Shown here: positions 22,501 to 38,209 of the stretch, in pieces
Layout of the letters: each line of letters opens with the position of its first letter
Position numbering within the stretch: position 1 is the stretch's first letter
Source: Clostridia bacterium
GTDB taxonomy: Bacteria > Bacillota > Clostridia > Christensenellales > Borkfalkiaceae
NCBI GenBank assembly: GCA_017504795.1
Contig: JAFVQM010000020.1
Location: forward strand, 1 to 57,548
DNA: 57,548 nt
Direction: 5' to 3'
Program-made: the position numbers and the translations under genes
Notes under the pieces: generated by a model
The model's database searches: none
What the model saw: only the letters and a program-made list of their open reading frames with translations
What the model was told of the DNA's origin: nothing

Positions 22501-22527
22501 AAAAACCCGACAACAGTCGGGTTTTTA
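22501..22527. terminator. Bidirectional terminator between paralogue B and the acyltransferase gene
   Basis: AAAACCCGAC, loop AACA and GTCGGGTTTT with A-run and T-run flanks. Confidence 0.85.
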
Positions 22528-23742
22528 TTTATTGAAATTTTCAACGTTAATTCTAAAAAGCGCCTTTACGTAGTTAATATACTCCATAACTTTTTTAGGG
22601 TCTTTTGGGTAAACTCTAAAAATATCGTTCCCGTCTTGAATTTCAAAGCGCTTATTAGGAACGCAGGGTAGCATAGGAAAGTTCCTTGCAAAAACTTGCT
22701 TGTAAAACTTTTCGCCACCGATAATCCCGTCGATTACAAAGTTGGCGTTATCAAGCGTTACGGTCGCACTGCCCACCTTTTCGTAACGGTGTTTTTTATC
22801 GTTAATTTTATGTATTTCAGCCTCGTCAACAATCTTATAGTCGGGGTTAGACTTTGCTGTTTCGTAAACGGAATTTTCTATAAACCTATGCCAGTCACTC
22901 ACCATAGAAAAGTATAGTTCGTGCTCGCTATTTTGGTGTAAAACTCCCATTTTATCGCTTTTGACCGAATACCCGCAACTAGCACAAGTCAAGACGTTTT
23001 TATTCGACTTTATAGTGTGCTCGCTATTACAGTTTGGGCATTTATATAAAACGCTTTCAAGCCCCTCGACTATATCGCCGTTTTTATATTCTACCTTGTT
23101 TTCTAGGTTGTTGCGATAGGCGTCGAAAAACAAGTGTTTTTCAATTAGAGCGCTAGCGTCTTCTTTCGAAAGGGCAGAAAACTCTTCACGCGATGCAAGT
23201 TTATAAAGTTTTGCAAACGAGCGCCCCTTCCTTTTAATGTTAGACCATTTTGGCATAGCCAAATACGTTCCGCTAATTTTTAGAACGTAGATATCTGCAT
23301 CAAACCATTTAAGAGTTTTAGCGGTAGCGGGTGGCGTGGGTGTTGCAATGCCCGCTTCGGGCATAAGGCCAGACGGGAATATCCCTAAAACCTTGCCGTC
23401 GTCTAGCACGGCTTTCATTTTCTTCATATCGCCAACCATAGTGGAAAACTGGTTTTTACCTATCAAACCACATTGTAGCATCAAATCGTGTATAGGTAAT
23501 GCGCGAACGTAAGAATTACTTGCAACTAAATGTGTTTTACCTGGAATTACCGAATAGGCAATCATAAAATCGAGCGATGACTCGTGGTTGATAATAACAA
23601 CCTTTCGTCGCCCGTCTTTACGGTTAAATTCCCTTCCTGTTACGTGTAATCCCATAAAAATTTTAGAATAAATTTTAGAAATTAACTTTACGGGATAGTA
23701 AATTATAGGGTTTATTTTGTTGTAAAGTTTTGCCTTTTTCAT
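22525..23742 (-). CDS. PlsC-type acyltransferase with zinc ribbon
   Basis: 405 residues from the ATG at 23742. The lysophosphatidate acyltransferase signature is 'VVIINHESSLDFMIAY' (HxxxxD) with 'VLGIFPSGLMPE' as the second acyltransferase block. A zinc ribbon follows (CPNC...CASC, roughly residues 230-260), then a long C-terminal region lacking known motifs. It probably acylates a phospholipid precursor or a related substrate at the membrane. In-frame starts further upstream (ATG 23829, TTG 23853) exist, but a strong promoter lies between them and 23742, which argues for the shorter form. Confidence 0.82.
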   Translation of the reverse strand: MKKAKLYNKINPIIYYPVKLISKIYSKIFMGLHVTGREFNRKDGRRKVVIINHESSLDFMIAYSVIPGKTHLVASNSYVRALPIHDLMLQCGLIGKNQFSTMVGDMKKMKAVLDDGKVLGIFPSGLMPEAGIATPTPPATAKTLKWFDADIYVLKISGTYLAMPKWSNIKRKGRSFAKLYKLASREEFSALSKEDASALIEKHLFFDAYRNNLENKVEYKNGDIVEGLESVLYKCPNCNSEHTIKSNKNVLTCASCGYSVKSDKMGVLHQNSEHELYFSMVSDWHRFIENSVYETAKSNPDYKIVDEAEIHKINDKKHRYEKVGSATVTLDNANFVIDGIIGGEKFYKQVFARNFPMLPCVPNKRFEIQDGNDIFRVYPKDPKKVMEYINYVKALFRINVENFNK

Positions 23743-23749
23743 AATAAAA

Positions 23750-23778
23750 ATTATACGCTTATAAAAAATTCTAGTCAA
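23750..23778 (-). promoter_or_regulatory. Promoter of the acyltransferase gene, possibly leaderless
   Basis: On the minus strand: TTGACT (23773-23778), 17-base spacer, TATAAT (23750-23755). Only 7 bases separate the -10 element from the ATG at 23742, so the transcript would begin at or next to the start codon. Confidence 0.65.
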
Positions 23779-23892
23779 TAAAATGTATTCCAAATACTGT
23801 AAAATGACAACTGTTAAATAAAAATTCATAAAAAATTTTTCAAAAATAGCCAAAATGCGCGAAAAACGCTTTTATTTATAAATAAAGTGTGA

Positions 23893-23959: not shown

Positions 23960-23977
23960 TTGTTAAATTTTTAACAA
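23960..23977. promoter_or_regulatory. Rex operator (perfect palindrome)
   Basis: TTGTTAAATTTTTAACAA: seven-base arms TTGTTAA and TTAACAA around ATTT, matching the TTGTTAANNNNTTAACAA Rex box described for Clostridia. It lies 26 bases upstream of the malate dehydrogenase ATG and may overlap a TTGTTA/TAAAAT promoter (23960-23987). Confidence 0.82.
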
Positions 23978-24003
23978 ATAATAAAATAAATGGAGATGTA
24001 AAA

Positions 24004-24954
24004 ATGAAGAAAAAGATTACGATTATCGGTGCGGGTGCAGTAGGCTCGTCAATAGGTTACTTATTAGTAGCGCAGGGTACTGCGTCAGAAGTTGTGTTTA
24101 TTGACGTTAACAATGAAAAAGCGCTTGGTGAGGCTATGGATATTTATCAAGCAACCCCGTTTTTGAACCCCGCGGTAGTAAGGGCTGGCGATTATGAGGA
24201 CGCGGTAGGTTCTGATATAGTAATTATCACTTCGGGTTTAGCGAGAAAGCCTGGTCAAACTAGAATTGACCTTGCTCAAACCAACGTAAACATCATAAAG
24301 AGCATTGCTCCTAAAATCACGGCGGTATGTCCTGATTCGATTTACGTTATCGTAGCAAACCCAGTTGACGTACTTACTTATACTTTCCACCAAGTTACTA
24401 ATATTCCCGCTAACAAAATTATCGGTTCGGGTACTAGTCTTGACACGGCTCGTTTAAGAACTAGGCTTTCTGAGATTTATAAAGTTTCTCCACTTCAAGT
24501 GGATGCGGACGTTTTGGGGGAACACGGTGACACGTCTTTCGTGGCTTGGTCAAAGGTAAGAATTGCCGGCGTTTCGGTTGACGAGTACGCTGACGTTATT
24601 ACCGATAAAGACAAAAAGGTTGAGCCTTACGACAAAGAAGAAGTTGCAGAATACATTAGAAAGTCGGGCGGAATTATCATTTCGAGAAAGGGCGCTACCT
24701 ACAACGGCGTTGCCGCTGCGGTTGCCTATATTTGTAAATGCTTATATTCGGGGGTTGACAGCGTTATTTGCGTATCCGTTTTATTAAAAGGCGAATACGG
24801 AATTAGTGACGTTTGTATCAGTATCCCCACCGTTATCGGCATGGGCGGTATCAAAACTACGCTTACCCCCACTTTAACCCAAGAAGAAACCGAAAAACTC
24901 GTTGCGAGTGCAAACGCTATGAAGAGCGTTATCGAGCAAGTTAACTGCAAGTAA
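24004..24954 (+). CDS. mdh: Malate dehydrogenase of LDH-like type
   Basis: A 316-residue NAD-dependent 2-hydroxyacid dehydrogenase: 'IIGAGAVGSSIGYLL' Rossmann loop, 'VANPVDVLTYTF', and catalytic His in 'DVLGEHGDTSFVAWS'. The fold and many residues are L-lactate dehydrogenase-like, but the substrate-specificity position, where LDH has Gln before KPG, is Arg81 in 'SGLARKPGQTRID'. Arg at this site recognises the second carboxylate of oxaloacetate/malate. The next gene is fumarase, which supports malate dehydrogenase. It is first in the Rex-controlled cluster; TGGAG precedes the ATG. Confidence 0.88.
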   Translation: MKKKITIIGAGAVGSSIGYLLVAQGTASEVVFIDVNNEKALGEAMDIYQATPFLNPAVVRAGDYEDAVGSDIVIITSGLARKPGQTRIDLAQTNVNIIKSIAPKITAVCPDSIYVIVANPVDVLTYTFHQVTNIPANKIIGSGTSLDTARLRTRLSEIYKVSPLQVDADVLGEHGDTSFVAWSKVRIAGVSVDEYADVITDKDKKVEPYDKEEVAEYIRKSGGIIISRKGATYNGVAAAVAYICKCLYSGVDSVICVSVLLKGEYGISDVCISIPTVIGMGGIKTTLTPTLTQEETEKLVASANAMKSVIEQVNCK

Positions 24955-24963
24955 GGAGAATTT

Positions 24964-26328
24964 ATGGAATACCGTATTGAAAAAGACACGATGGGGGAAA
25001 TGAAAGTCCCCGCGGATAGGTACTGGGCGGCTCAAACGCAAAGAAGTTATCAAAACTTCCAAATCGGTGGCGAAGTTATGCCACGCGAAATAACCCACGC
25101 TTTCGGCATACTTAAAAAGGCAGCGGCTATTGCAAACCACCGCTTAGGTAAGATTGACGACGAGAAGTTAAACGCTATCAAAACCGCGTGTGACGAAGTT
25201 ATATCGGGCAGTTTGAACGGTCACTTCCCGCTTGTCGTATGGCAAACGGGCTCGGGCACGCAGTCCAATATGAACGCTAACGAAGTTATTGCAAACCGCG
25301 GTAATGAAATCGCAGGTAAAAAACTTCTTCACCCGAACGACGATATCAATAAAAGCCAGTCAAGTAACGATACTTTCCCAACGGCTATGCACATTGCGGC
25401 TGTTATCGCTATTGAAGACAAACTCTTCCCTGAAATTGACGCGCTTATTGAAGTGTTTAAGAGATTAGAAAAAGAAAACGAAGGGATTGTAAAGAGTGGT
25501 AGAACCCACCTTCAAGACGCTGTTCCCGTAAGTTTCTCGCAAGAAATTAGCGGTTGGAGAAATATGCTTGAAAAAACCAAGGGCATGCTCGAACTTGCAC
25601 TTCCCGGTCTTAAAGAACTTGCTCTCGGCGGTACTGCGGTAGGCACGGGGCTCAACGCACCCAAGGGCTTTGACGTAGCGGTTGCCGAAGAAGTTAGCAA
25701 TTTAACGGGTAAAAAGTTTATCACCGCTCAAAACAAATTCCACGCGCTCACCGCGAAAGATGAACTCGTGTTTGCGCACGGCGCACTCAAAGCGCTTGCT
25801 TGCGACCTTATGAAGATTGCAAACGACGTAAGGTGGTTATCGTCCGGTCCTAGATGCGGTTTAGGTGAAATATTTATCCCTGAAAACGAACCCGGCTCGT
25901 CGATAATGCCAGGTAAGGTTAACCCCACTCAATGCGAGTCGATGACGATGGTTGCCGTTCAAGTAATGGGTAACGACGCGGCTGTTGGCTTTGCATCGTC
26001 GCAAGGTAACTTTGAACTCAACGTGTTTATGCCCGTAATTATTTACAACTTCTTGCAATCGGCAAGATTGCTTGCAGACGGTATACGTTCGTTCAACAAA
26101 AACTGCGTATCGGGAATTAGGGCAAACAAAGAAAAAATGAATCACAACTTATACAATTCGCTTATGCTCGTAACGGCGCTCAACCCGTATATCGGTTATG
26201 AAAACGCCGCTAAAACTGCGAAACTTGCGCACAAGGAAAACATCAGTTTGAAAGAAGCGTGCGTATCGCTCGGGTTTTTAAGCGCGGAAGAATTCGACAA
26301 GGTGTTCAAACCTGAACAAATGGTGTAA
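24964..26328 (+). CDS. fumC: Class II fumarate hydratase
   Basis: A 454-residue iron-independent fumarase interconverting malate and fumarate. The superfamily signature 'GSSIMPGKVNPTQCE' starts near residue 311. The active-site regions 'TGSGTQSNMNANEVIANR' and 'KSSNDTFPTAMH'-like 'SQSSNDTFPTAMH' and 'GRTHLQDAVPVSF' are intact. TGSGTQSN with FPTAMH indicates fumarase, not aspartase. It lies 9 bases after mdh with an AAGGAG site and feeds the fumarate reductase genes 7 kb downstream in the same run. Confidence 0.95.
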   Translation: MEYRIEKDTMGEMKVPADRYWAAQTQRSYQNFQIGGEVMPREITHAFGILKKAAAIANHRLGKIDDEKLNAIKTACDEVISGSLNGHFPLVVWQTGSGTQSNMNANEVIANRGNEIAGKKLLHPNDDINKSQSSNDTFPTAMHIAAVIAIEDKLFPEIDALIEVFKRLEKENEGIVKSGRTHLQDAVPVSFSQEISGWRNMLEKTKGMLELALPGLKELALGGTAVGTGLNAPKGFDVAVAEEVSNLTGKKFITAQNKFHALTAKDELVFAHGALKALACDLMKIANDVRWLSSGPRCGLGEIFIPENEPGSSIMPGKVNPTQCESMTMVAVQVMGNDAAVGFASSQGNFELNVFMPVIIYNFLQSARLLADGIRSFNKNCVSGIRANKEKMNHNLYNSLMLVTALNPYIGYENAAKTAKLAHKENISLKEACVSLGFLSAEEFDKVFKPEQMV

Positions 26329-26331
26329 ATT

Positions 26332-27114
26332 ATGAAATTTTCTTATTATCCGGGTTGTACCCTTAAAACTAAGGCAAAAGAATTAGACTTATACGGCAGA
26401 AAATCGCTTGAAAAATTAGGCGTTGACTTTGAAGAAGTTAAAGAGTGGCAGTGTTGCGGTGCGGTTTACCCCGTTTCGCGCGATGAAGTTGCAACTAAAC
26501 TTTCAGCCGTTAGAACGCTTGCAAGCGCAAAGCAAGAAAACGCTAAACTCTTAACGTTGTGTTCGGCTTGTCATCACGTATTAAAGCGCGTGAACGACGA
26601 TATGAAAAACGACGATAATATCCGCTTAAAAGCAAACAACTACTTAGGTCTTGACGAACCCTATCAAGGCGAGACGGAAGTAGTTCATTACCTTGAACTT
26701 TTAAGAGACTACGTTGGCTTTGATAAAATTAAAGAAGCGGTAGTTAACCCCTTAAAAGGTCAAAAAATCGCAGCGTACTACGGTTGTTTACTTCTTCGCC
26801 CGTCGGAAACGTTGAAGTTTGATAACCCCGAAAACCCGTCGATTATCGAAGAGTTTATAAAGGCTATCGGCGCAACCCCCGTAAAATACCCCTTCTCTAA
26901 CGAGTGTTGTGGAGCGTACGTTTCGGCAACTAATAAAGAAATCGCAGTTAAAAAGAGCACCAAGGTTACCGATTCTGCGGTAGCAAACGGCGCTGAAAAA
27001 ATCGTAACCGCTTGTCCGCTTTGTATGTATAACCTTACTGAAAACGGCAATAAGAAAGTTCCCGTATACTACTTTACCGAACTTCTTGCCGAAGCGCTTG
27101 GCGTAAAGGAGTAA
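26332..27114 (+). CDS. hdrB: Heterodisulfide reductase subunit B-like protein (HdrB)
   Basis: 260 residues with two complete CCG motifs: Cys9, Cys41-Cys42 and Cys77/Cys80 in the first, and 'YYGCLLLRP', 'NECCGAY' and 'ACPLCMYN' in the second. In methanogen HdrB these ligate two non-cubane [4Fe-4S] clusters that reduce the CoM-S-S-CoB disulfide. Bacterial Hdr-like complexes use the same fold with other acceptors. Nothing here makes coenzyme M or B. It is 3 bases after fumC and 3 bases before hdrC. Confidence 0.93.
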   Translation: MKFSYYPGCTLKTKAKELDLYGRKSLEKLGVDFEEVKEWQCCGAVYPVSRDEVATKLSAVRTLASAKQENAKLLTLCSACHHVLKRVNDDMKNDDNIRLKANNYLGLDEPYQGETEVVHYLELLRDYVGFDKIKEAVVNPLKGQKIAAYYGCLLLRPSETLKFDNPENPSIIEEFIKAIGATPVKYPFSNECCGAYVSATNKEIAVKKSTKVTDSAVANGAEKIVTACPLCMYNLTENGNKKVPVYYFTELLAEALGVKE

Positions 27115-27117
27115 CTT

Positions 27118-27504
27118 ATGGAAAAGAACGAAATCGTTAGACTTGTTAAAGAAAGAAGCGGAACTGACGCTAGAAAGTGTATGAAGTGTGGTAAATGCTC
27201 GGGTAGATGCCCGGCGTATCACGATATGGATATCAAGCCTCATCAATTCGTATCATATATAGAAAAGGGCGAGATAGACAAACTTATGCAAAGCAAATCG
27301 CTTTACACTTGTTTAAGTTGTTTTGCTTGCGTTGAAAGGTGCCCCCGTGGCGTAGCGCCTGCAAACGTAATTGAAGCGGTTAGACAAGAAGTTATCCGTC
27401 AGCAAGGCGGTAACAAAATTATGGCTGAAACCGTTCCGTCTATGATAGACGAAACTATACCCCAACAACTTCTCGTAAGTATGTTCAGAAAATTAAACAA
27501 ATAA
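27118..27504 (+). CDS. hdrC: Heterodisulfide reductase subunit C-like protein (HdrC)
   Basis: A 128-residue soluble ferredoxin-like protein with two [4Fe-4S] motifs: 'CMKCGKCSGRCPA' (about residues 20-32) and 'CLSCFACVERCPRG' (about 62-75), separated by a helical segment as in HdrC. It passes electrons between HdrA and HdrB. No transmembrane segment is present, so this is the cytoplasmic HdrABC type and not the membrane HdrDE type. GGAG in the end of hdrB is its ribosome-binding site. Confidence 0.94.
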   Translation: MEKNEIVRLVKERSGTDARKCMKCGKCSGRCPAYHDMDIKPHQFVSYIEKGEIDKLMQSKSLYTCLSCFACVERCPRGVAPANVIEAVRQEVIRQQGGNKIMAETVPSMIDETIPQQLLVSMFRKLNK

Positions 27505-27520
27505 TTAAGGAATATAGAAA

Positions 27521-29512
27521 ATGCAAAAGATTGGTGTATTTGTGTGTTGGTGCGGTTCTAATATCGCGGCAACGGTAGACGTAAAAAAGGTAGCGGAAGT
27601 ATTAAAAGCCGAACCCGGCGTTGTAATATCTGAAAACTATCAATATATGTGTTCTGAAAACGGGCAAGCGCTTATCCGCAACGCCATTAAAGAACACGGG
27701 TTAACGGGCGTAGTAGTATGTTCTTGTTCGCCAAGAATGCACGAAGCGACTTTTAGAAAGACTTGTGAAAGCGCAGGTCTTAACCCCTATATGGTAGAAA
27801 TTGCAAATATTCGTGAACAATGTTCGTGGATACATAAAGATATTGAAGAAGCTACCGAAAAGGCAATTATTCTCGGCAGAAGCGCTATCGCTAAACTTAA
27901 ACTTAACGCTCCATTAACTTCTGGCGAAAGCGCAGTTGTTAAAAGAGCGCTCGTTATCGGCGGTGGTATTGCGGGTATTCAGTCTGCACTTGATATCGCA
28001 GAAGCAGGTTTTGAAGTTGACATCGTTGAGCAGTCTCCAACTATCGGCGGAAACATGGCTAAACTTGACAAAACTTTCCCCACGCTTGACTGTGCTGCTT
28101 GTATCTTAACCCCCAAAATGGTTGACTGCGCTCAAAACGAGAAAATCGACATTATGACGTTTAGCGAAATAGAGTCGGTTAAAGGTTTCGTAGGAAACTT
28201 CAAAGTTCAAATTAGAAGAAAAGCAAGGTTCGTAGACGAGAAGAAGTGTACGGGCTGTGGCGAATGTATGCAAAAATGCCCGTCAAAGAAAGGTCTTAAC
28301 GACTTCAATATGGGCTTAAACACTCGCCCCGCTATTTATATTCCGTTTGCACAAGCAATTCCCAACGTGGCTATTATCGACCCCGAACAATGCTTGAAGA
28401 TTAAAAACGGCAAGTGCGGTCTTTGCGCTATGAAATGTAACGTTAACGCTATCGACTACACTCAAAAAGACGAAATTATTGAAAGAGAATACGGCGCTAT
28501 CGTAGTTGCTACGGGTTACAAGCCTATCTCACTCGAAAACTTTAACGAATACGGTTATTCAAGTTATAAAGACGTTGTTACTTCGCTTGAACTTGAAAGA
28601 CTTATGAACGCCGCAGGTCCTAGTGACGGGCACTTAGTTCGTCCTTCCGACCATAAAGAACCTAAGGTTATCACCTTTATTCAATGCGTTGGTTCAAGAG
28701 ACACGTCTGGTTGCGGTAAACCGTATTGTAGTAAAATCTGTTGTATGTACACGGCAAAGCACGCAATGCTTATCCGTGAAAAATATCCCGACACCGAAGT
28801 TCACGTATTCTATATAGACGTGCGTACCCCGGGTAAAAACTACGACGAGTTCTTCCGTAGAGCGGTTGAGCAATACGGCGTTGACTACATAAAGGGTATG
28901 GTAGGTAAGGTTTACGAAGAAAACGGCAAACTTATGGTTCAAGGTTCAGACCTTATCAATAACGAGCAAGTAGTAATTCCTTCCGACCTTGTAGTTTTAG
29001 CGGCGGCTATCGAGCCTAACCCGTCGGTTAGAAATATCGCTACTATGGTAACGGCAAGTATCGATACCAACAACTTCCTTACCGAAGCGCACGCAAAACT
29101 TCGTCCCGTAGAAAGCCCCACGGCTGGTATCTTCTTATCGGGTGTTTGCCAAGGTCCTAAGGATATTCCTGAAACCGTTTCGCAAGCGAGCGCTTGTGCG
29201 GCAAAAGTTATAGGGTTACTTGCAAAAGATAAACTTAAATGCAACGCTTGCGTATCGCACTCTGACGAAATGCTTTGTACGGGTTGTTCGGTATGTGCAA
29301 ACGTTTGTCCTTACGGCGCAATCACTTACGTTGATAAAGAATTCCGCTTAGGCGGTGGCAAAACCGAAGTACGCAGAGTTGCCACGGTTAACGACGCGGT
29401 ATGTCAAGGTTGCGGTGCTTGTACGGTTGCTTGTCCGTCGGGCGCAATGGACTTAAAAGGATTTAGCAACAAGCAAATTATGGCGGAGGTAGACGCGATA
29501 TGCAAGAGATAA
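27521..29512 (+). CDS. hdrA: Heterodisulfide reductase subunit A-like flavoprotein (HdrA)
   Basis: 663 residues, the flavoprotein where bifurcation occurs in HdrABC complexes. The N-terminal domain is present ('GVFVCWCGSNIA', 'SENYQYMCSENGQ', 'CSCSPRMHE'). The FAD domain begins 'VIGGGIAGIQSALDIAEAG' near residue 145, followed by 'TLDCAACILTPKMVDC'. Iron-sulfur motifs: 'CTGCGECMQKCPSK', 'CLKIKNGKCGLCAMKCN', then a C-terminal pair 'CTGCSVCANVCPYGA' and 'CQGCGACTVACPSGA'. The length is that of the full, non-truncated HdrA. It overlaps the next gene by 13 bases. Confidence 0.95.
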   Translation: MQKIGVFVCWCGSNIAATVDVKKVAEVLKAEPGVVISENYQYMCSENGQALIRNAIKEHGLTGVVVCSCSPRMHEATFRKTCESAGLNPYMVEIANIREQCSWIHKDIEEATEKAIILGRSAIAKLKLNAPLTSGESAVVKRALVIGGGIAGIQSALDIAEAGFEVDIVEQSPTIGGNMAKLDKTFPTLDCAACILTPKMVDCAQNEKIDIMTFSEIESVKGFVGNFKVQIRRKARFVDEKKCTGCGECMQKCPSKKGLNDFNMGLNTRPAIYIPFAQAIPNVAIIDPEQCLKIKNGKCGLCAMKCNVNAIDYTQKDEIIEREYGAIVVATGYKPISLENFNEYGYSSYKDVVTSLELERLMNAAGPSDGHLVRPSDHKEPKVITFIQCVGSRDTSGCGKPYCSKICCMYTAKHAMLIREKYPDTEVHVFYIDVRTPGKNYDEFFRRAVEQYGVDYIKGMVGKVYEENGKLMVQGSDLINNEQVVIPSDLVVLAAAIEPNPSVRNIATMVTASIDTNNFLTEAHAKLRPVESPTAGIFLSGVCQGPKDIPETVSQASACAAKVIGLLAKDKLKCNACVSHSDEMLCTGCSVCANVCPYGAITYVDKEFRLGGGKTEVRRVATVNDAVCQGCGACTVACPSGAMDLKGFSNKQIMAEVDAICKR

Positions 29513-29940
29513 ATAAAGAGAAAAAACCGCTTATCGTAGCGTTTTGCTGTAACTGGTGTAGTTACGCTGGCGCGGACCTTGCAGGTTCGTCAAGATTATC
29601 GTATCCTGCCGACGTAAAGATTATAAGAGTTCCTTGCTCGTGTAGAGTTAACCCTATGTTTATATTAAAGGCTTTCCAAAGGGGTGCTGACGGGGTTATC
29701 ATCTGCGGTTGCCACCCGGGCGACTGCCACTATACGACTGGTAACTACTACGCTAGAAGAAGAATGTCACTTCTATTTAGTATGCTTGACTATTTGGGAA
29801 TTGAAAGAGAAAGAACTCGCGTTGAGTGGGTATCGGCTGCCGAAGGCGCTAAATTTTCAAAGGTTATGAACGAGTTCGCAAGCAAAATTAACGAACTTGG
29901 CGAAAATAAGAGATTGGAGGATTTAAGATGCAAAAATTAG
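29500..29940 (+). CDS. mvhD: MvhD/FloxD-type [2Fe-2S] protein
   Basis: 146 residues. The MvhD pattern is complete: 'FCCNWCSYAGADLAG', 'VPCSCRVNPMFILKAFQRGADGVIICGCHPGDCHYTTGN' and 'RRRMSLLFSMLDYLGIE'. MvhD docks on HdrA and delivers electrons from a hydrogenase, formate dehydrogenase or NADH-oxidising module. No hydrogenase subunit is adjacent; the following genes are Flox-type. It overlaps both hdrA and the next gene by 13 bases, indicating tight stoichiometry. Confidence 0.94.
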   Translation: MQEINKEKKPLIVAFCCNWCSYAGADLAGSSRLSYPADVKIIRVPCSCRVNPMFILKAFQRGADGVIICGCHPGDCHYTTGNYYARRRMSLLFSMLDYLGIERERTRVEWVSAAEGAKFSKVMNEFASKINELGENKRLEDLRCKN

Positions 29941-30884
29941 AAACTTTAATGCTTGAAAAAGCCAAAAATCTTTTAAGTAGCGGTGAAGTATCGAGAGTTC
30001 TCGGCTGGAAAAAGGGCGAATTAGGTTACGACGTTGAGCCTTCGGTATTTACTAGCGCCCAAAGTCTTGATAATTTCGTTTACAACGTATTTTGCGGAGC
30101 AAACCTTTCAAAATACTTAGTTCAAGAAACCAAAAAAGAAGGCAAAATTTTAGTTTTCTTAAAACCGTGTGACAGTTATAGCTTTAATCAACTTATAAAA
30201 GAACACAGAATAAACAAAGACAAAGTTTACACCGTTGGCGTTGAGTGTCAAGGTAAAATTGACAACTACAAACTCAAAGAAAACGGCATAGAAGTAGTTG
30301 AAAGTTTTGACGAAGAAGTTGACTTCGTTACCGTAAACGGCAAAAAGTTTACAAAGGGCGAAATCGTTCTCGGTAAATGTTCGGTTTGCGAGAAGAAACT
30401 TCTTGACTATGACGAAGTTATTTCGATAAACGAAAAGCGTAGCCCCGATAAAGACCGTTTTGAAATGGTTAAAAAGTTAGAATCTATGACGGCTGACGAA
30501 AGATACGCTTTCTGGAAAGACCAACTTTCTAACTGCATACGCTGTAACGCTTGTAGAAACGTATGTCCTGCTTGTACTTGTACTAAATGCGTTTTCGATA
30601 ACGACAATTCGGGCATAGCAAGTAAGGCAAACAGCGATAGTTTTGAAGAAAAGATGTTCCACATAATTAGGGCTTTCCACGTAGCAGGTCGTTGTACCGA
30701 CTGTGGCGAGTGTTCAAGAGTTTGCCCTCAGCATATCCCCTTACACCTTCTCAACAGAAAGTTTATCGGCGATATCAACAGATTATACGGCACTTACCAA
30801 GCGGGTGAAGATACCACTTCAAAAGGTCCTTTAACCGACTATACTAAGCAAGACGTTGATCCGAGCGACGTATTTGGAGGTTGA
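29928..30884 (+). CDS. FloxC-like iron-sulfur protein (FrhB-related N-terminus)
   Basis: 318 residues. The N-terminal part (about 1-180) has 'FLKPCDSYSFNQLIKEHRI', 'VGVECQGK' and 'GKCSVCEKK', resembling the F420-hydrogenase/dehydrogenase beta-subunit superfamily. The C-terminal part has two ferredoxin motifs, 'CIRCNACRNVCPACTCTKC' (about 204-222) and 'CTDCGECSRVCPQHIP' (about 260-275). It matches the FloxC position in HdrABC-Flox clusters, between the MvhD-like and AsrA-like proteins. The assignment as FloxC rests on gene order and motif content. Confidence 0.8.
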   Translation: MQKLETLMLEKAKNLLSSGEVSRVLGWKKGELGYDVEPSVFTSAQSLDNFVYNVFCGANLSKYLVQETKKEGKILVFLKPCDSYSFNQLIKEHRINKDKVYTVGVECQGKIDNYKLKENGIEVVESFDEEVDFVTVNGKKFTKGEIVLGKCSVCEKKLLDYDEVISINEKRSPDKDRFEMVKKLESMTADERYAFWKDQLSNCIRCNACRNVCPACTCTKCVFDNDNSGIASKANSDSFEEKMFHIIRAFHVAGRCTDCGECSRVCPQHIPLHLLNRKFIGDINRLYGTYQAGEDTTSKGPLTDYTKQDVDPSDVFGG

Positions 30885-30889
30885 AACTT

Positions 30890-31909
30890 ATGAAAAAGAT
30901 TGCTATATCTAATATTGAAAAGTTATATAACGAAATAAGTTCACTTCAAGAACTTTATCTTCCCGTAAAAAAAGCGGGCGCTACTAACTTTGCCAAGTAC
31001 GAAAACGGGGTTGACGTTGATATTAAATCACTTCAAACCGTAAAGTCGGCAAAAGACTTATTCTTCCCCCAAAGCGAAGATATGATAGACTTCAAAGTTA
31101 GCGGTAAAAACATTGAGATAAAAGACGCGCGCGCGCAATCTAACCCCTTCGTGTTATTCGGCGTTAGAGGTTGTGACCTTAAAAGTTTTGAAGTGTTAGA
31201 CAAGGTGTTCTTACAAGAACCCGTTGACACTATGTACAAGTCAAAGCGCGACGCGGTTACCGTAATAACCCTTGCTTGTAACAATCCTGAAAGTTCGTGT
31301 TTTTGTAAAGTATTTGGGGTAGACCCAGCAAACCCGAAAGGCGATATCCAAGCGACTATCGTTGGCGAAGAAATGTTCTTTGAACCTTTAACGGATAAGG
31401 GTAGCGAACTACTTTCAAAACTCACCACGCTTGAAGACGGTGACGAAAAGGCAGTTGAAAGCGAAAAGAAAGAAATTTCTCAAAAGGTAGAAAAACTTCC
31501 GTTTGTAAACCTTGATTTATCTAACTTCAAAGGCGAAAACCTTATGGAACTTTTTGATAGACCTGAGTGGGAAGAACTTTCAAAGGCTTGCCTTGGCTGT
31601 GGTACTTGTACCTTCGTTTGCCCGACTTGTCAGTGCTTTGATATAAGGGACTTTGAAACGAACGATGGGGTTAAGAGATTTAGGTGTTGGGACTCGTGCA
31701 TGTATTCTGAATTTACCAAAATGGCTGCCGAAAACCCAAGAAAAACCCAAATGCAACGCTACCGCCAAAGATTTATGCATAAACTCGTATACTTCCCCGC
31801 AAACAACGGTGGAGAGTACAGTTGCGTAGGTTGCGGAAGATGCGTTAAAAAATGCCCGCAATCACTCAATATTGTAAAAGTAATAAAGAAACTCGGAGGT
31901 AAAAACTAA
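30890..31909 (+). CDS. FloxB/AsrA-like 4Fe-4S dicluster protein
   Basis: 339 residues from ATG 30890 (GGAGG 10 bases upstream; a TTG at 30881 is too close to that site). 'RGCDLKSFEVLD' and 'CNNPESSCFCKVFGVDP' in the N-terminal half and 'CLGCGTCTFVCPTCQCFDI' plus 'CVGCGRCVKKCPQSLN' in the C-terminal half match anaerobic sulfite reductase subunit A and FloxB. It would carry electrons from the flavin subunit encoded next toward MvhD/HdrA. The acidic stretch near residues 185-205 looks like a linker. Confidence 0.83.
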   Translation: MKKIAISNIEKLYNEISSLQELYLPVKKAGATNFAKYENGVDVDIKSLQTVKSAKDLFFPQSEDMIDFKVSGKNIEIKDARAQSNPFVLFGVRGCDLKSFEVLDKVFLQEPVDTMYKSKRDAVTVITLACNNPESSCFCKVFGVDPANPKGDIQATIVGEEMFFEPLTDKGSELLSKLTTLEDGDEKAVESEKKEISQKVEKLPFVNLDLSNFKGENLMELFDRPEWEELSKACLGCGTCTFVCPTCQCFDIRDFETNDGVKRFRCWDSCMYSEFTKMAAENPRKTQMQRYRQRFMHKLVYFPANNGGEYSCVGCGRCVKKCPQSLNIVKVIKKLGGKN

Positions 31910-32736
31910 TGACTAATGAAGCGTTAATTCCCGTAGTCGGCGTGATTACGGACATAAGAAAAGACACCCCCGACGTTAAGACTTTTAGAGTTGTAACACC
32001 CGACGGTAAGAAGGCTTTCGAGCATATGCCCGGTCAATGCGCAATGCTTTCAATCCCAGGTGTAGGCGAGGCTATGTTTTCAATAACTTCGTCGCCAACG
32101 AATACCGAATTTATGGAGTTTTCCATTAAAAAATGCGGTTGCGTAACTTCTTGGTTACACTCTTGCGAAGTAGGGCAAATGGTAACTATTCGTGGACCTT
32201 ACGGCAACGGTTTCCCCGTTGAAACTGCTTTCAAGGGCAAAAATATGCTCTTTATCGCAGGTGGTATCGGTTTAGCGCCTTTGCGTTCGGTAATCAACTA
32301 CGTTCGCGCTCACCGTGAAGATTACGGCACGGTAGATATCGTATACGGCTCGCGTTCGATGGACGACCTTGTTGATTTTAAGGAAATCGAAGAAGAGTGG
32401 AAGAACGAAAAGGACTTTAACGTATTTTTAACGATTGACCGTGAGCAAGAAGGTTGGGACGGGCACGTTGGTTTCGTACCCGCGTACGTTAAAGAAGTTA
32501 ATATTCCTACTGACAGAACGGCTATCCTTTGCGGTCCGCCGATAATGATTAAGTTTACCTTACAAGCGCTACTTGAACTCGGCTTTAATAAAGAACAAGT
32601 TTACACCACGCTTGAATTCCGTATGAAATGCGGTGTAGGTAAATGCGGTCGTTGTAACGTAGGTAACAAATACATTTGTAAAGACGGTCCTGTATTCCGT
32701 ATGGACCAACTTGAAGAACTTCCTTCGGAATACTAA
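31909..32736 (+). CDS. FloxA/AsrB-like FAD-NAD(P)H oxidoreductase
   Basis: 275 residues of the ferredoxin-NADP reductase fold. FAD domain with 'MPGQCAMLSIPGVGEAMFSITSSPT' and 'TIRGPYGNGFPVE'. NAD-binding domain with 'MLFIAGGIGLAPLRSVINY' and 'ILCGPPIMIKFTLQALLELG'. C-terminal [2Fe-2S] motif 'CGVGKCGRCNVGNKYICKDGP'. In HdrABC-Flox this subunit oxidises NADH and supplies electrons for bifurcation. Its start shares TAATG with the preceding stop. Confidence 0.88.
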   Translation: MTNEALIPVVGVITDIRKDTPDVKTFRVVTPDGKKAFEHMPGQCAMLSIPGVGEAMFSITSSPTNTEFMEFSIKKCGCVTSWLHSCEVGQMVTIRGPYGNGFPVETAFKGKNMLFIAGGIGLAPLRSVINYVRAHREDYGTVDIVYGSRSMDDLVDFKEIEEEWKNEKDFNVFLTIDREQEGWDGHVGFVPAYVKEVNIPTDRTAILCGPPIMIKFTLQALLELGFNKEQVYTTLEFRMKCGVGKCGRCNVGNKYICKDGPVFRMDQLEELPSEY

Positions 32737-32750
32737 TAGGAGAAAAAATT

Positions 32751-33425
32751 ATGGAAAAAATGGTAAACGTTTACTTTTTCGGTAAAAAATACTCTGTACC
32801 CCAAAGCCTTACTATTATGAAGGCTATGGAATACGCAGGCTATCAACTTATTCGCGGTTGTGGTTGCCGTAACGGTTTCTGTGGCGCGTGCGCAACGCTT
32901 TACAGAATTCACGGCAAAACCGAACTTAAAACTTGTCTTGCTTGTCAACAACAAGTAGAAGAAGGTATGTACGTAGCAACTCTTCCTTTCTTCCCGCTCG
33001 TTAAACAAGTATACGATATACAAAAGGTTAAACCCACCGAGCAAATTATGATGCAATTATATCCTGAAATTTATAGTTGTATCGGCTGTAACGCTTGTAC
33101 TAAGGCTTGCCCGCAAGAACTTAAAACTATGCAATATATCGCATACGCTCAACGTGGCGAATATGCAAAGTGCGCAGAAGAGTCTTTCGACTGTATTATG
33201 TGCGGTCTTTGCTCGTCTAGATGCCCGGCAGGTATTTCTCATCCCCAAGTTGCAATCTTGGCTAGAAGACTTTACGGCAAGTACATTGCGCCCGAATGCA
33301 AGCACCTTCTTGACCGCGTAGCGGAAATCAACGAAGGCAAGCACGACGACAGCATGGCAGACATTATGAACAAATCTCTCGAAGAGCAAAAAGCCCTTTA
33401 CAACTCGAGAGATATTGAAAAGTAA
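32751..33425 (+). CDS. frdB: Fumarate reductase iron-sulfur subunit-like protein (soluble)
   Basis: A 224-residue protein. N-terminal [2Fe-2S] domain: 'RGCGCRNGFCGACATLY' with the distal 'KTCLACQ', as in SdhB/FrdB. C-terminal domain with 'CIGCNACTKACPQEL' (about 107-121) and 'CIMCGLCSSRCPAGI' (about 146-160). Both are classical four-Cys motifs as in HdrC and TfrB; canonical FrdB has a [4Fe-4S] plus [3Fe-4S] pair there. No membrane anchor gene (FrdC/SdhC) is present. AGGAG precedes the ATG, 14 bases after floxA. Confidence 0.85.
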   Translation: MEKMVNVYFFGKKYSVPQSLTIMKAMEYAGYQLIRGCGCRNGFCGACATLYRIHGKTELKTCLACQQQVEEGMYVATLPFFPLVKQVYDIQKVKPTEQIMMQLYPEIYSCIGCNACTKACPQELKTMQYIAYAQRGEYAKCAEESFDCIMCGLCSSRCPAGISHPQVAILARRLYGKYIAPECKHLLDRVAEINEGKHDDSMADIMNKSLEEQKALYNSRDIEK

Positions 33426-33439
33426 GGAGGGGTAAAAAG

Positions 33440-35047
33440 ATGTATCAATACACTCAAGAACAACTTGATTCAATGAAGAAGGTAGAAGCGTCTCGTCAAG
33501 AAAGACTTTCTAATCTTCACGCAAGAATGACCGCTGATGAAAAGGACGCGGTTTTGAAACAATTCCACCCCGACTATATTGAAAGCGCTTACGAAACGCT
33601 TAAAGTAGGTCCTAACAAAGGCGAAAAAGTTCTTCACGAACTTGCCGACCTTTTACAAGGTAAGTCAAGAATTGAAACTTCTAAAATCGACCTTTCAAAA
33701 CCCGATTACGACGTTGACGTTTTAGTTATCGGCGGTGGCGGTGCAGGTTCGTCTGCCGCAGTTACCGCGCACGCTAACGGCGCTAACGTTATGATAGTTA
33801 CCAAACTTAGAATAGGCGACGCTAACTCAATGATGGCAGAAGGCGGTATCCAAGCGGCTGATAAGCCTAACGATAGCCCTGCTCAGCACTATCTTGATGC
33901 GTTCGGTGGCGGTCACTTTGCCGCTAAACCTTGCCTTCTTGAAAAACTCGTTAAAGAAGCGCCAGACGCTATTCGTTGGCTTTCCGACCTTGGCGTTATG
34001 TTCGATAAAACCGCAACGGGCGAAATGGTAACCACTCACGGTGGCGGTACTTCTAGAAAGAGAATGCACGCTTGTAAAGACTATTCGGGCGCTGAAATTA
34101 TGAGAACCCTTCGTGACGAAGTTCTCAACAGAGGTATCCCCGTTGTTGACTTTACCGCAGCAATAGAAATTATTAAAGACGTTGAAGGTAAAGCAGCAGG
34201 TGCCGTTCTTCAAAATATGGAAACGGGCGAAATCTTAATCGCTAAGGCTAAAACCGTAGTTATCGCAACGGGTGGCGCTGGTAGACTTCACTATCAAGGT
34301 TTCCCAACTTCTAACCACTACGGCGCAACGGCTGACGGTTTAGTTCTCGCTTACCGCGCAGGCGCAAGCCTTTTATATGCTGACACTTTACAATATCACC
34401 CCACCGGCGCAGCAGAACCCACTCAAATTTACGGCGCGCTCGTAACTGAAAAAGTTCGTTCATTAGGCGCACAACTCGTTAATAAAAACGGTGAAGCGTT
34501 CGTATACTCACTCGAAACGCGTGACGTAACCGCATCTACTATCATTAGAGAATGTAAAGGTCGCGGTAACGGCGTTAAGACGACTGACGGTGAAGGCGTA
34601 TGGCTCGACACCCCGATGATAGACATTATCGGTGGCGAAGGCACTATCGAAAAACGTATCCCCGCAATGATGAGAATGTTCGGTAAATACGGCATTGATA
34701 TTAGAAAAGAGCCCATCTTAATTTACCCCACGCTCCACTATCAAAACGGCGGTATCGATATCGAGGCTGATGGTCAAACCACCAAAATCGAAAACCTTTA
34801 CGTTGCAGGCGAGGCAGTAGGGGGTATCCACGGTAGAAACAGACTTATGGGTAACTCACTTCTCGACATTATCGTATTTGGTAGAAACGCTGGTAAATAC
34901 GCTAGTGAAAAGTGTAAAACCGTTGAAGTTAAAGAACTCACCCTTTCTCACGTTGACGCTTTCAATAAAGAACTTTCTGACGCCGGCGTTGATACGGGCA
35001 AAGTATCTCCGCAACTTCTTCCTAACTATAAACGTCAAGACCTTTAA
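33440..35047 (+). CDS. frdA: Fumarate reductase/succinate dehydrogenase flavoprotein-like subunit
   Basis: 535 residues. A helical N-terminal extension of about 90 residues precedes the FAD Rossmann loop 'VIGGGGAGSSAAV' (G98 on). Catalytic-domain blocks match the family: 'LQYHPTG', 'ALVTEKVRSLGAQLVNKNGEAF', 'ETRDVTASTI' (proton-shuttle Arg), 'PTLHYQNGGI' and 'GIHGRNRLMGNSLLDIIVFGRNAG'. The His that binds FAD covalently in membrane enzymes (SHT) is replaced ('DANSMMAEGG'), so FAD should be non-covalent, as in soluble fumarate reductases. The usual C-terminal helical domain is nearly absent. L-aspartate oxidase is a less likely alternative. Confidence 0.85.
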   Translation: MYQYTQEQLDSMKKVEASRQERLSNLHARMTADEKDAVLKQFHPDYIESAYETLKVGPNKGEKVLHELADLLQGKSRIETSKIDLSKPDYDVDVLVIGGGGAGSSAAVTAHANGANVMIVTKLRIGDANSMMAEGGIQAADKPNDSPAQHYLDAFGGGHFAAKPCLLEKLVKEAPDAIRWLSDLGVMFDKTATGEMVTTHGGGTSRKRMHACKDYSGAEIMRTLRDEVLNRGIPVVDFTAAIEIIKDVEGKAAGAVLQNMETGEILIAKAKTVVIATGGAGRLHYQGFPTSNHYGATADGLVLAYRAGASLLYADTLQYHPTGAAEPTQIYGALVTEKVRSLGAQLVNKNGEAFVYSLETRDVTASTIIRECKGRGNGVKTTDGEGVWLDTPMIDIIGGEGTIEKRIPAMMRMFGKYGIDIRKEPILIYPTLHYQNGGIDIEADGQTTKIENLYVAGEAVGGIHGRNRLMGNSLLDIIVFGRNAGKYASEKCKTVEVKELTLSHVDAFNKELSDAGVDTGKVSPQLLPNYKRQDL

Positions 35048-35100
35048 TTCGTTTTTAACGTCTTAAATGGTGTTTATATAGGCTTTCAAAAAATATTAAA

Positions 35101-35131
35101 TTTAGCGTTTGGCGTAAAGTCAAACGCTAAA
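35101..35131. other. Hairpin between frdA and the transporter gene
   Basis: TTTAGCGTTTG, nine-base loop, CAAACGCTAAA. Only AATAAT follows, so it is a weak terminator on the + strand. It may stabilise the upstream mRNA or partly separate the carrier gene from the reductase cluster. Confidence 0.55.
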
Positions 35132-35159
35132 ATAATGCTTAGTTATATGGAGTAAAATT

Positions 35160-36503
35160 ATGGAAAAACAAAACAAAAAGGGGCTTATAGGGTGGTTAAT
35201 TATAGGCGTTATCCTTGCTGCCCTTATCGGTTGGTGCGTGTATAACGCAGTTTCGGCAGGCACGGTTGACAAGGTTTTTAAGTTCGGCTCAACCGCAGTG
35301 CTTTTTATCCTTATATTTATAATCGTAGCGCTCGGCTACTTGCTTGGCTCTATTACCATTAAGGGCGTAAACTTAGGAACGGCAGGCGTATTCTTAGTTG
35401 CAATACTCTTTGGTTTTTTATGTACGCTTGACTTTGGTAACGTTCCTATCTTAGGCGCTTTCCACGTAACCCACGAAAGTTCAGTAGTTTCTACTATGGG
35501 TGGCTCGGTACAAAACTTAGGTCTTATAATGTTCGTAGGCTCGGTTGGTTTAATCGCTGGCCCTAACTTTTTCAAAAACCTTAAAAAGAACTTCAAAACC
35601 TACATAGTACTCGGCGCGGTAATTATTTTATCGTCAACCTTAGTTGCCGTTATCTTTACTTTGGCAACAGGTTATAGCCCAGAATTTTGGGCGGGCATAC
35701 TCTCTGGCGCTCTTACGACCACCCCTGGTTTTTCGGCAGCGCAAGAAGCCGCTAAACAAACTGCAAGCGAATTCTATAACCAAATCTCGCTCGGTCACGC
35801 TATTGCGTACCCGTTCGGCGTTGTTGGCGTTGTACTTTTCGTTCAACTTATGCCAAAGTTCTTGAAAGTTGATATGGATAAAGAACGCGCACTCTTAAAA
35901 CTCGGCGATGAAGACGAAGTTAGAAATTATTGCGGTTTATTTGAAGTTGAGCCTTTCGGGCTTGTTCCCGTAGCCTTAACCGTAGTTTGCGGTTTAATCT
36001 TAGGCGCTATTAAAATTCCGCTTTTCGGCGGTTCGTCGTTCAGTTTAGGAACAACCGGTGGCGTACTCATTATGGGCTTAGTGCTCGGTCACTTTGGTAA
36101 AATCGGCAAACTCTCGCTTGCCGTTCCCGAAACCACTTTGAAACTTTTAAGAGAATTCGGTTTAATGCTCTTCCTTCTCGGCGCAGGCTTTGAAGGTGGT
36201 GTAAACCTTGTTTCCGAAGTAGCAGCATCGGGCGGTGGCTTAGTAGTTTGGGGTTTTATCGGTGGCGCGCTTATGACTACCGTTCCTATGATAGTAGGCT
36301 TTATCTTAGCAAAATTCGTTATGAAACTTCCCCTTCTCAACGGTCTTGGCTCAATTACTGGCGGTATGACTTCAACTCCCGCACTCGGCACCTTAATCAA
36401 CACCGCTAAAACGGAAGACGTAGCGTCCGCTTACGCGTCAACCTATCCTATCGCGCTCGTACTCGTGGTACTTGCTTGTCAGTTAATGATAACTCTTCTT
36501 TAA
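35160..36503 (+). CDS. AspT/SucE (AAEx) family dicarboxylate carrier
   Basis: 447 residues, about ten membrane segments in two homologous halves. Each half carries the family's hairpin motif: 'ILSGALTTTPGFSAAQEA' in the first and 'LGSITGGMTSTPALGTLIN' in the second. The usual AspT proteins are about 540 residues with two cytoplasmic TrkA_C/RCK domains between the halves; here only a short loop (about 240-270) remains. Known members exchange aspartate for alanine (AspT) or export succinate (SucE). Its place after frdA suggests succinate, fumarate or aspartate as substrate. Confidence 0.83.
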   Translation: MEKQNKKGLIGWLIIGVILAALIGWCVYNAVSAGTVDKVFKFGSTAVLFILIFIIVALGYLLGSITIKGVNLGTAGVFLVAILFGFLCTLDFGNVPILGAFHVTHESSVVSTMGGSVQNLGLIMFVGSVGLIAGPNFFKNLKKNFKTYIVLGAVIILSSTLVAVIFTLATGYSPEFWAGILSGALTTTPGFSAAQEAAKQTASEFYNQISLGHAIAYPFGVVGVVLFVQLMPKFLKVDMDKERALLKLGDEDEVRNYCGLFEVEPFGLVPVALTVVCGLILGAIKIPLFGGSSFSLGTTGGVLIMGLVLGHFGKIGKLSLAVPETTLKLLREFGLMLFLLGAGFEGGVNLVSEVAASGGGLVVWGFIGGALMTTVPMIVGFILAKFVMKLPLLNGLGSITGGMTSTPALGTLINTAKTEDVASAYASTYPIALVLVVLACQLMITLL

Positions 36504-36504
36504 T

Positions 36505-36870
36505 TTTTAATCCCTTATAAGCGTCGCATAACGGCGTTACTGCTTCGGTCTTGCGACCACAACAACCAACAAGGTTAGTTTTGTCCGCAAGCCCTTGCGA
36601 GCCTTGTTCTGCTCGCTTCTAAGGTCTTAAAACAAGTTGTAAATAAACTCCCGTTTGAATAAAATGGGAGTTTTTATTATCTCCAACAAGGTCGCTCCCT
36701 TCCGCAAAACCACAAACGCCTCGCCTAACTTGTAACTAAGCCCTTAAACCAAGTTTTAATAGGCTTTAAGATAAGTGGACTTCGATGACCAAAAAGGTTT
36801 ATCTCACCCCGTAAACTTCGCGAGCCTTGATATACTTGCAACTAACGTCTTAAAAAGGTTGCAATAAACA
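36505..36870 (+). repeat. Cluster of three stem-loop repeat units (units 5-7)
   Basis: Unit 5 (36505-36632): outer arms CTTGCG/CGCAAG, tip AACC-AACAA-GGTT, closed by 'GCGAGCCTTG' and CTTAAAACAAG. Unit 6 (tip CC-AACAA-GG at 36683-36691, tail ACTTGTAACTAAGCCCTTAA). Unit 7 (tip GACC-AAAAA-GGTT at 36787-36799, tail ACTTGCAACTAACGTC). A terminator-like hairpin CTCCCGTTT...AAAATGGGAG with TTTTT (36646-36676) separates units 5 and 6. Unit 5 is 127/128 identical to 48743-48870. Confidence 0.75.
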
Positions 36871-38195: not shown

Positions 38196-38209
38196 ATAGG
38201 AGGGTAATT

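What the first reader, a model, noticed from the sequence alone, without database searches (positions are those of the whole stretch)
23960..36503. Candidate soluble, electron-bifurcating NADH:fumarate reductase (HdrABC-Flox coupled to FrdAB)
Seen: a single-strand run mdh-fumC-hdrB-hdrC-hdrA-mvhD-floxC-floxB-floxA-frdB-frdA-aspT, with gaps of 17 bases or less or overlaps from mdh through frdA. Known: HdrABC-MvhD modules bifurcate electrons at HdrA between ferredoxin and a high-potential acceptor (CoM-S-S-CoB in methanogens; DsrC proposed for HdrABC-Flox of sulfate reducers; a methylene-THF reductase is attached to HdrCBA-MvhD in Moorella). Here the built-in acceptor would be fumarate (E0' near +30 mV), with NADH as donor through the FloxA-like subunit and ferredoxin reduced in parallel. 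No DsrC, CoM/CoB or hydrogenase catalytic gene and no membrane anchor is present. I know of no characterised enzyme with this composition, but cannot search the literature. It would let a cytochrome-free anaerobe conserve the NADH-fumarate energy gap as reduced ferredoxin.
Basis: partly seen in the sequence, partly recalled or inferred. Interest (0 to 1): 0.93.

Follow-up and report, generated by a model that had tools for sequence, protein, structure and literature searches.

The report
Ferredoxin-charging soluble fumarate reductase operon
This bacterial genome carries a run of genes predicted to build a soluble enzyme that would reduce fumarate with NADH while charging the electron carrier ferredoxin; that idea is already in print for one other Clostridium, and the same nine-gene core stands in the same order in all 61 related loci whose DNA reached far enough to check.

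Summary
In detail: twelve same-strand genes, mdh-fumC-hdrBCA-mvhD-flxCBA-frdBA-aspT, lie at the stated coordinates, with gaps of at most 16 bases or overlaps up to frdA. The parts are right too: FlxABCD-HdrABC plus a FrdAB without membrane anchor. The nine-gene core is in order in 61 of 61 testable named loci, including cultured Eubacterium coprostanoligenes ATCC 51222. The novelty claim fails: an operon of this layout, with ferredoxin-coupled fumarate reduction proposed, is described for Pseudoclostridium thermosuccinogenes (PMC7282089). My searches listed no biochemical test, so I file it as a new member of a known, still hypothetical kind. Added here: the cluster ligands are kept; FrdA has lost the covalent-FAD histidine; FrdB has two complete 4Fe-4S sites; and FrdBA relatives also occur away from Hdr, beside cytochromes, and in three near-complete genomes where no HdrA was found, so coupling is not obligatory for the family. 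In the window's genome (83.6% complete) no Rnf, [NiFe] hydrogenase or PFOR was found, only a group-B [FeFe] hydrogenase; if ferredoxin is reduced, its likely fate is H2 or biosynthesis rather than ion pumping.

The parts
23960..23987 (+). promoter-like match upstream of mdh
   Evidence: 9 of 12 consensus positions; not evidence of function
24004..24954 (+). mdh: LDH/MDH-family dehydrogenase, likely malate dehydrogenase (Arg in the RKPG specificity loop)
   Evidence: LDH models above cut-off, MDH model just below; RKPG or RKAG, once RRPG, in the relatives printed; specificity rule recalled
24964..26328 (+). fumC: class II fumarate hydratase
   Evidence: TIGR00979 746 bits against cut-off 664.75
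26332..27114 (+). hdrB: two CCG domains with ten conserved cysteines (two non-cubane-cluster sites predicted)
   Evidence: PF02754; one search matches HdrB chains of 8rvv, 7bkb, 5odc; ten Cys conserved 70 of 70
27118..27504 (+). hdrC: 4Fe-4S dicluster subunit
   Evidence: eight Cys conserved 74 of 74
27521..29512 (+). hdrA: FAD subunit, predicted site of electron bifurcation
   Evidence: 674 bits to 5odc_A, FAD-proximal CCMY cluster and both ferredoxin-type domains aligned; ligands
29500..29940 (+). mvhD/flxD: FlpD-type subunit, predicted link from Flx to HdrA
   Evidence: PF02662, 190.6 bits
29928..30884 (+). flxC: 4Fe-4S subunit
30881..31909 (+). flxB: sulfhydrogenase-beta/AsrA-like 4Fe-4S subunit
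   Evidence: PF17179; NF040829 (below cut-off)
31909..32736 (+). flxA: FAD/NAD(P)H-binding subunit, predicted NADH entry
   Evidence: PF00175, PF00970, PF10418
32751..33425 (+). frdB: 2Fe-2S domain plus a dicluster half with two complete 4Fe-4S motifs
33440..35047 (+). frdA: fumarate reductase flavoprotein, non-covalent FAD predicted, about 90-residue N-terminal extension
   Evidence: TfrA best model; top fold E. coli FrdA 1kf6
35160..36503 (+). aspT: AspT/YidE-family transporter, likely dicarboxylate (succinate) exit
   Evidence: PF06826; family includes a succinate exporter (PMC9527358, start of abstract in search listing)
36645..36673 (+). terminator-like hairpin after aspT
   Evidence: as many matches as in shuffles, so weak

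Best explanation
The operon is predicted to encode a soluble NADH:fumarate reductase in which FlxABCD-HdrABC would split electron pairs from NADH between ferredoxin and, through HdrB/HdrC and FrdB, fumarate on FrdA. Shown: the genes, their order and conservation, and the conserved cofactor ligands. Inferred: NADH enters at FlxA; FlxB, FlxC and MvhD pass electrons to the HdrA FAD; HdrA sends one electron of each pair to ferredoxin and the other through HdrC and the two predicted non-cubane clusters of HdrB to FrdB and FrdA. Overall: 2 NADH + fumarate + 2 Fd(ox) -> 2 NAD+ + succinate + 2 Fd(red), about -49 kJ/mol from E0' -320, +33 and -420 mV (my arithmetic). Mdh and FumC would make fumarate from oxaloacetate and AspT probably exports succinate.
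For: Nine core genes in order in 61 of 61 testable named loci; flxA upstream in 75 of 75 and frdB directly upstream in 78 of 78 with room, and flxA-frdB-frdA in 29 of 29 genome-search loci. Ligands kept: HdrB ten Cys 70/70, HdrC eight 74/74, FrdB eight 123/123, 22 HdrA cysteines 71/71 (four more near its N-terminus 70/71), in register with bifurcating HdrA 5odc. Substrate residues His320, Glu337, Arg361, His433 and Arg468 in 128/128, Thr336 in 127/128. Covalent-FAD His replaced by Asn in all 126 family members, His only in 2 outgroup rows. QFR-type Glu134 in 109 of 109 window-type operons (Glu/Gln rule from PMC10308238, passage). TfrA is the best NCBIfam model for FrdA, and the TfrB model matches parts of HdrB, HdrC and FrdB, all below cut-off: in TfrB HdrB-like and FrdB-like domains are one chain (recalled), a precedent for HdrB-FrdB transfer. 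DsrC over cut-off in 0/20 carriers. Fumarase, malic enzyme and probable SucCD beside relatives of FrdBA (SucCD read by eye) tie the family to fumarate/succinate. P. thermosuccinogenes operon about 4-fold up under CO2 limitation, not significant for every subunit, and an older report there that 85% H2 nearly abolished succinate (PMC7282089, passages).
Against: No biochemistry was found in what I could read. HdrA (E <= 1e-60) was not found in 3 of 28 chosen genomes that hold FrdBA; two of these (G356, G353) also lack any CCG match, and one HdrA-less case (L120) branches inside the operon clade. Other relatives sit beside NapC-type or b561-type cytochromes. HdrABC genes alone do not prove bifurcation (PMC5861303, passage), and the ferredoxin partner of Moorella MetFV-HdrABC-MvhD carries a question mark there. 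Crude soluble extract of Pelotomaculum thermopropionicum shows NADH:fumarate activity (35.7 mU/mg) in an assay mix that lists no added ferredoxin (PMC10308238, passages); whether that enzyme is of this family was not tested. Hdr-Flx-linked relatives with other gene orders carry Gln at position 134 (3 of 3 frd-first, L121, L127), so the Glu does not track Hdr linkage as such. In P. thermosuccinogenes, lowering the culture redox potential with Na2S had the opposite effect to H2, which its authors call confusing. FlxA might use NADPH; not tested.
Confidence: 0.6

Rival explanations
1. Same complex, no bifurcation: Flx-Hdr is only a wire from NADH to FrdAB, and the energy gap is lost as heat.
For: Moorella MetFV-HdrABC-MvhD has no identified ferredoxin partner, and HdrABC genes are said not to be sufficient proof (PMC5861303, passages); NADH:fumarate activity in P. 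thermopropionicum crude soluble fraction in an assay listing no ferredoxin (PMC10308238, passages).
Against: HdrA keeps the FAD-proximal cluster and both ferredoxin-type domains in 71 of 71; a seven-subunit module conserved in 61 of 61 loci is costly for a plain NADH oxidase.
Confidence: 0.2
2. HdrB reduces a diffusible disulfide and the dithiol donates to FrdAB, a two-step relay like thiol:fumarate reductase.
For: Both predicted non-cubane-cluster sites of HdrB are intact (70 of 70); TfrA is the nearest named model of FrdA.
Against: DsrC over cut-off in 0 of 20 carriers; no thiol-carrier gene seen in the operon; FrdB has no CCG domain of its own.
Confidence: 0.1
3. FrdAB works alone with another donor and is only co-transcribed with an unrelated Flx-Hdr.
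For: HdrA not found in 3 of 28 genomes with FrdBA; varied neighbours in relatives.
Against: Unbroken linkage in 61 of 61 and 29 of 29 loci and a second linked arrangement, frdB-frdA-hdrB-hdrC-hdrA, in L118, L119 and L122.
Confidence: 0.1

Closest known systems
Pseudoclostridium thermosuccinogenes 'succinate operon' (CDQ83_RS03365-03315; PMC7282089, passages; Koendjbiharie and van Kranenburg preprint 2019, seen only as a reference)
   Same: fumarate hydratase, then Flx-Hdr (seven genes by counting locus tags in steps of five), then two fumarate reductase genes, then a possible succinate transporter; ferredoxin coupling proposed
   Different: no mdh is listed in that operon, whereas the window has mdh and an AspT-type transporter; that host is described with Rnf, Ech and PFOR, none of which was found in the window's incomplete genome; sequences were not compared
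FlxABCD-HdrABC of Desulfovibrio vulgaris (Ramos et al., reference entry only)
   Same: all seven subunit types
   Different: DsrC is the postulated acceptor there (PMC5296606, passage); here FrdAB is in the operon and no DsrC was found over cut-off
Thiol:fumarate reductase TfrAB of methanogens (recalled; NCBIfam models)
   Same: nearest FrdA model; FrdB-like and HdrB-like parts work together
   Different: here HdrB and FrdB are separate chains; score far below the TfrA cut-off (329 against 718 bits)
Membrane quinol:fumarate reductase (FrdABCD)
   Same: FrdA fold and substrate residues
   Different: no anchor gene, no covalent-FAD His, and the second 4Fe-4S motif is complete where the quinone enzymes have a 3Fe-4S site (recalled)
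MvhADG/FdhAB-HdrABC of methanogens
   Same: HdrABC with HdrA as bifurcating subunit
   Different: NADH module in place of hydrogenase or formate dehydrogenase; fumarate in place of CoM-S-S-CoB

Membership tests
FlxABCD-HdrABC | adjacent genes for HdrA, HdrB, HdrC, FlxA, FlxB, FlxC and FlxD/MvhD | tested here: met
FlxABCD-HdrABC | NADH dehydrogenase and heterodisulfide-type reductase activity | not testable with these tools
   no biochemistry
P. thermosuccinogenes-type succinate operon | fumarase, Flx-Hdr (7 genes), two Frd genes, transporter in that order | tested here: met
   against the gene list in PMC7282089; the order inside Flx-Hdr is not given there
P. thermosuccinogenes-type succinate operon | sequence homology of FrdA to CDQ83_RS03320/25 | not tested
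   no call reached that record by name
Quinol:fumarate reductase | covalent FAD histidine in FrdA | tested here: not met
   Asn129; Asn in 126 of 126 family members
Quinol:fumarate reductase | 3Fe-4S site in FrdB (one ligand missing) | tested here: not met
   both 4Fe-4S motifs complete in 123 of 123
Quinol:fumarate reductase | membrane anchor gene in the operon | tested here: not met
   no such gene between mdh and aspT
Thiol:fumarate reductase TfrAB | TfrB as one chain with FrdB and HdrB parts; TfrA over its cut-off | tested here: not met
   separate genes; 329.3 against 718 bits
Flavin-based electron-bifurcating enzymes (HdrA group) | HdrA with FAD site, FAD-proximal cluster and ferredoxin domains | tested here: met
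Flavin-based electron-bifurcating enzymes (HdrA group) | ferredoxin-dependent turnover with both acceptors | not testable with these tools
   needs purified enzyme
L-aspartate oxidase | catalytic Glu of NadB (Glu121 in E. coli; position recalled) | tested here: inconclusive
   the window reads TTHGGG near there; no alignment to NadB was printed and the match was made by eye from memory

The most novel reading that the evidence does not exclude
In the window's lineage, which seems to have shed pyruvate:ferredoxin oxidoreductase, Rnf and Ech, this complex is the main source of reduced ferredoxin, and with the group-B [FeFe] hydrogenase it forms a wholly soluble fumarate-powered hydrogen machine: 2 NADH + fumarate + 2 H+ -> 2 NAD+ + succinate + H2. 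FrdBA is a plug-in oxidant module whose HdrC-like half docks on HdrB here and on cytochromes in relatives.
Probability: 0.25. Interest if true: 0.75.

Novelty: new member of a known kind. Interest (0 to 1): 0.5.

Why it matters
If right, fumarate (+33 mV) is a built-in high-potential acceptor of an Hdr-type bifurcating enzyme, with a larger driving force than CoM-S-S-CoB, and succinate formation through this soluble route would yield reduced ferredoxin. A strict FrdA match was found in 41 of 292 genomes drawn from the window's class, the window's included, and 29 of 29 other loci fetched there carry flxA-frdB before it; record titles show many ruminant-gut assemblies. So it bears on succinate and H2 in the gut. 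The cultured carrier E. coprostanoligenes ATCC 51222 makes the published proposal directly testable.

Tried and rejected

Rows dropped: genes that were cut, interrupted or outside 0.85-1.2 times the window's length were left out, which gives the different denominators. In one search, 19 of 80 named loci were not scored for the core for lack of upstream DNA. Of the 40 other genomes matching, loci of 29 were fetched there. The 20 carrier genomes were hand-picked from the hits and the 28 from those; the 13 are the window's genome and those of 12 of the 80 loci; the 20 are those 13 plus 7 carriers. The tree has 46 rows chosen from 128; L129 is not in it, and it is a quick search without bootstrap.
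Full report
Observation. Pfam and NCBIfam scans support the identities. The one soft call is mdh: lactate dehydrogenase models score above cut-off (340 against 339; 320 against 303.55) and a malate dehydrogenase model just below (271.9 against 283), but the specificity loop reads RKPG, with Arg where LDH has Gln (the rule is recalled); RKPG or RKAG (once RRPG) recurs in the relatives printed.

Conservation. A genome-contig scan with FrdA kept the best 80 of 570 related stretches, among them Eubacterium coprostanoligenes ATCC 51222 (L069), a Christensenella MAG (L099) and Candidatus Gallacutalibacter (L101). In 61 of the 80, FrdA starts at base 7200 or later; all 61 carry hdrB-hdrC-hdrA-mvhD-flxC-flxB-flxA-frdB-frdA in order. 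fumC precedes hdrB in 58 of 61 and mdh lies upstream in 41 of 61. An AspT-like gene follows in 62 of 71 with room. In 292 genomes drawn from the class, 41, the window's included, have an FrdA match at 1e-120; all 29 loci fetched there from other genomes have flxA-frdB-frdA together on one strand.

Family boundary and modularity. In 398 genomes drawn from the phylum, 42, the window's included, match FrdA at 1e-70. There is a clear step: matches of at least 52% identity reach into the N-terminal extension (from residue 2-10), and the three matches at 39-40% begin at residue 86-90. Outside the window-type clade the context changes: frdB-frdA-hdrB-hdrC-hdrA-mvhD-flxC-flxB (L118, L119, L122), hdrC-hdrB-hdrA-mvhD-flxCBA-frdBA (L127), hdrC-hdrB-frdB-frdA (L117), several hdrA-like genes upstream (L121), NapC-type cytochromes (L113, L125), a b561-type cytochrome with a 4Fe-4S part (L111), and fumarase (L126), malic enzyme (L116), pyruvate carboxylase (L120) or probable SucCD (L114, read by eye). 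HdrA at 1e-60 was found in 25 of 28 chosen genomes and not in G623, G356 and G353, each about 99% complete; G356 and G353 also lack any CCG match, as does G552, which was not in the HdrA search, while G623 has one 723-residue CCG frame. By the coordinates I count HdrA within about 10 kb of FrdA in 7 of those 28; contig ends could hide more. On the FrdA tree (46 rows) the window-type operons group together apart from L127, with the HdrA-less L120 nested among them. So the coupling is old and stable in the window's clade, but FrdBA can be used without it.

Redox centres. HdrB keeps ten cysteines in 70 of 70, HdrC eight in 74 of 74, FrdB eight 4Fe-4S cysteines in 123 of 123. FrdB also keeps the 2Fe-2S motif (Cys39, 44, 47, 65 in 123 of 123; Cys37 in 122). 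HdrA aligns over residues 3-659 with 5odc_A, including the CVGSRD...CCMY cluster motif and both ferredoxin-type domains; 22 of its cysteines are kept in 71 of 71. FrdA keeps the dicarboxylate residues (128 of 128, Thr336 127 of 128), has Asn in place of the covalent-FAD His in all 126 family members, and the QFR-type Glu134 in 109 of 109 window-type operons; Gln occurs in 6 of 9 unlinked, 3 of 3 frd-first, L121 and L127. The Glu/Gln meaning comes from PMC10308238 (passage). Loss of the covalent bond is expected to favour fumarate reduction over succinate oxidation (recalled from E. coli FrdA His44 work).

Genome setting. The window's genome is 1.40 Mb in 39 contigs, 83.6% complete. Its operon HdrB is the only CCG protein found in it. 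Carrier genomes: [FeFe] hydrogenase in 20 of 20, Rnf/Nqr in 12 of 20, PFOR over cut-off in 17 of 20, DsrC over cut-off in 0 of 20. The window's genome has none of Rnf/Nqr, PFOR or DsrC over cut-off, and its single [FeFe] hydrogenase is group B1 (TIGR04105, 589.6 against 450 bits). In a set of 13 genomes (the window's and 12 of named loci): Rnf/Nqr in 2, PFOR over cut-off in 4 and partial in 1. [NiFe] hydrogenase large subunit: one short match, in the E. coprostanoligenes genome, among 20. Incompleteness of the assemblies is a real caveat.

Mechanism. With E0' of NADH -320, Fd -420 and fumarate +33 mV (values as in PMC5861303, passages), reducing fumarate with one NADH releases 68.1 kJ/mol, and reducing 2 Fd with another costs 19.3, so the coupled reaction gains about 48.8 kJ/mol (my arithmetic). 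Steps shown: genes, order, conserved ligands. Steps inferred: NADH as donor (FlxA could take NADPH), ferredoxin as low-potential acceptor, direct HdrB/C to FrdB transfer, succinate export by AspT (the family includes a succinate exporter, PMC9527358, start of abstract in the listing).

What is known. PMC7282089 (passages) describes in P. [quoted passage not shown] It also discusses an older report that 85% H2 nearly abolished succinate, as expected if ferredoxin re-oxidation limits the enzyme, and that Na2S did the opposite. The preprint is not held and was not read. The listings of searches showed me no later biochemical proof in the open-access library; I opened passages of five papers (PMC7282089, PMC5861303, PMC7382037, PMC10308238, PMC5296606), not all listed ones. 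PMC10308238 (passages) reports soluble NADH:fumarate activity in P. thermopropionicum and assigns it to a cytoplasmic FrdAB with an FrhB-type neighbour: a second soluble NADH-linked fumarate reductase of different composition. PMC5296606 (passages) suggests that HdrABC homologues elsewhere may use NADH and disulfides such as DsrC; fumarate occurs once in that text, in a growth medium.

Verdict. The novelty claim does not: this is a further, well-conserved member of a published but, as far as I could see, untested kind. What is added is its breadth in gut Clostridia, the ligand-level evidence, the modular history of FrdBA, and a genome where Rnf, [NiFe] hydrogenase and PFOR were not found.

Noticed in passing
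window 38186-41719 (+): 1177-aa protein with an alpha/beta-hydrolase part and BspA-type leucine-rich repeats; its C-terminal part reads by eye like a Hint domain, not reported by Pfam at 1e-6.
   Followed up: partly
window 54354-56978 (+): Pyruvate phosphate dikinase, which could feed PEP to oxaloacetate and the succinate branch.
   Followed up: no
L114 and L115 (genome G374): One genome with two copies of the FrdA family about 90 kb apart: one with FrdB between a 4Fe-4S gene and probable SucCD, the other with no FrdB match beside a DUF4387 gene.
   Followed up: partly
L120 (genome G623): FrdBA nested in the operon clade but next to pyruvate carboxylase in a near-complete genome where no HdrA was found; its electron donor is unknown.
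   Followed up: partly
L121:7679-15974: FrdBA preceded, on the same strand, by hdrC, hdrB, three hdrA-like stretches and mvhD.
   Followed up: no
window 22525-23853 (-): Acyltransferase with a C-terminal part holding paired CxxC cysteines, a possible zinc ribbon seen by eye.
   Followed up: no
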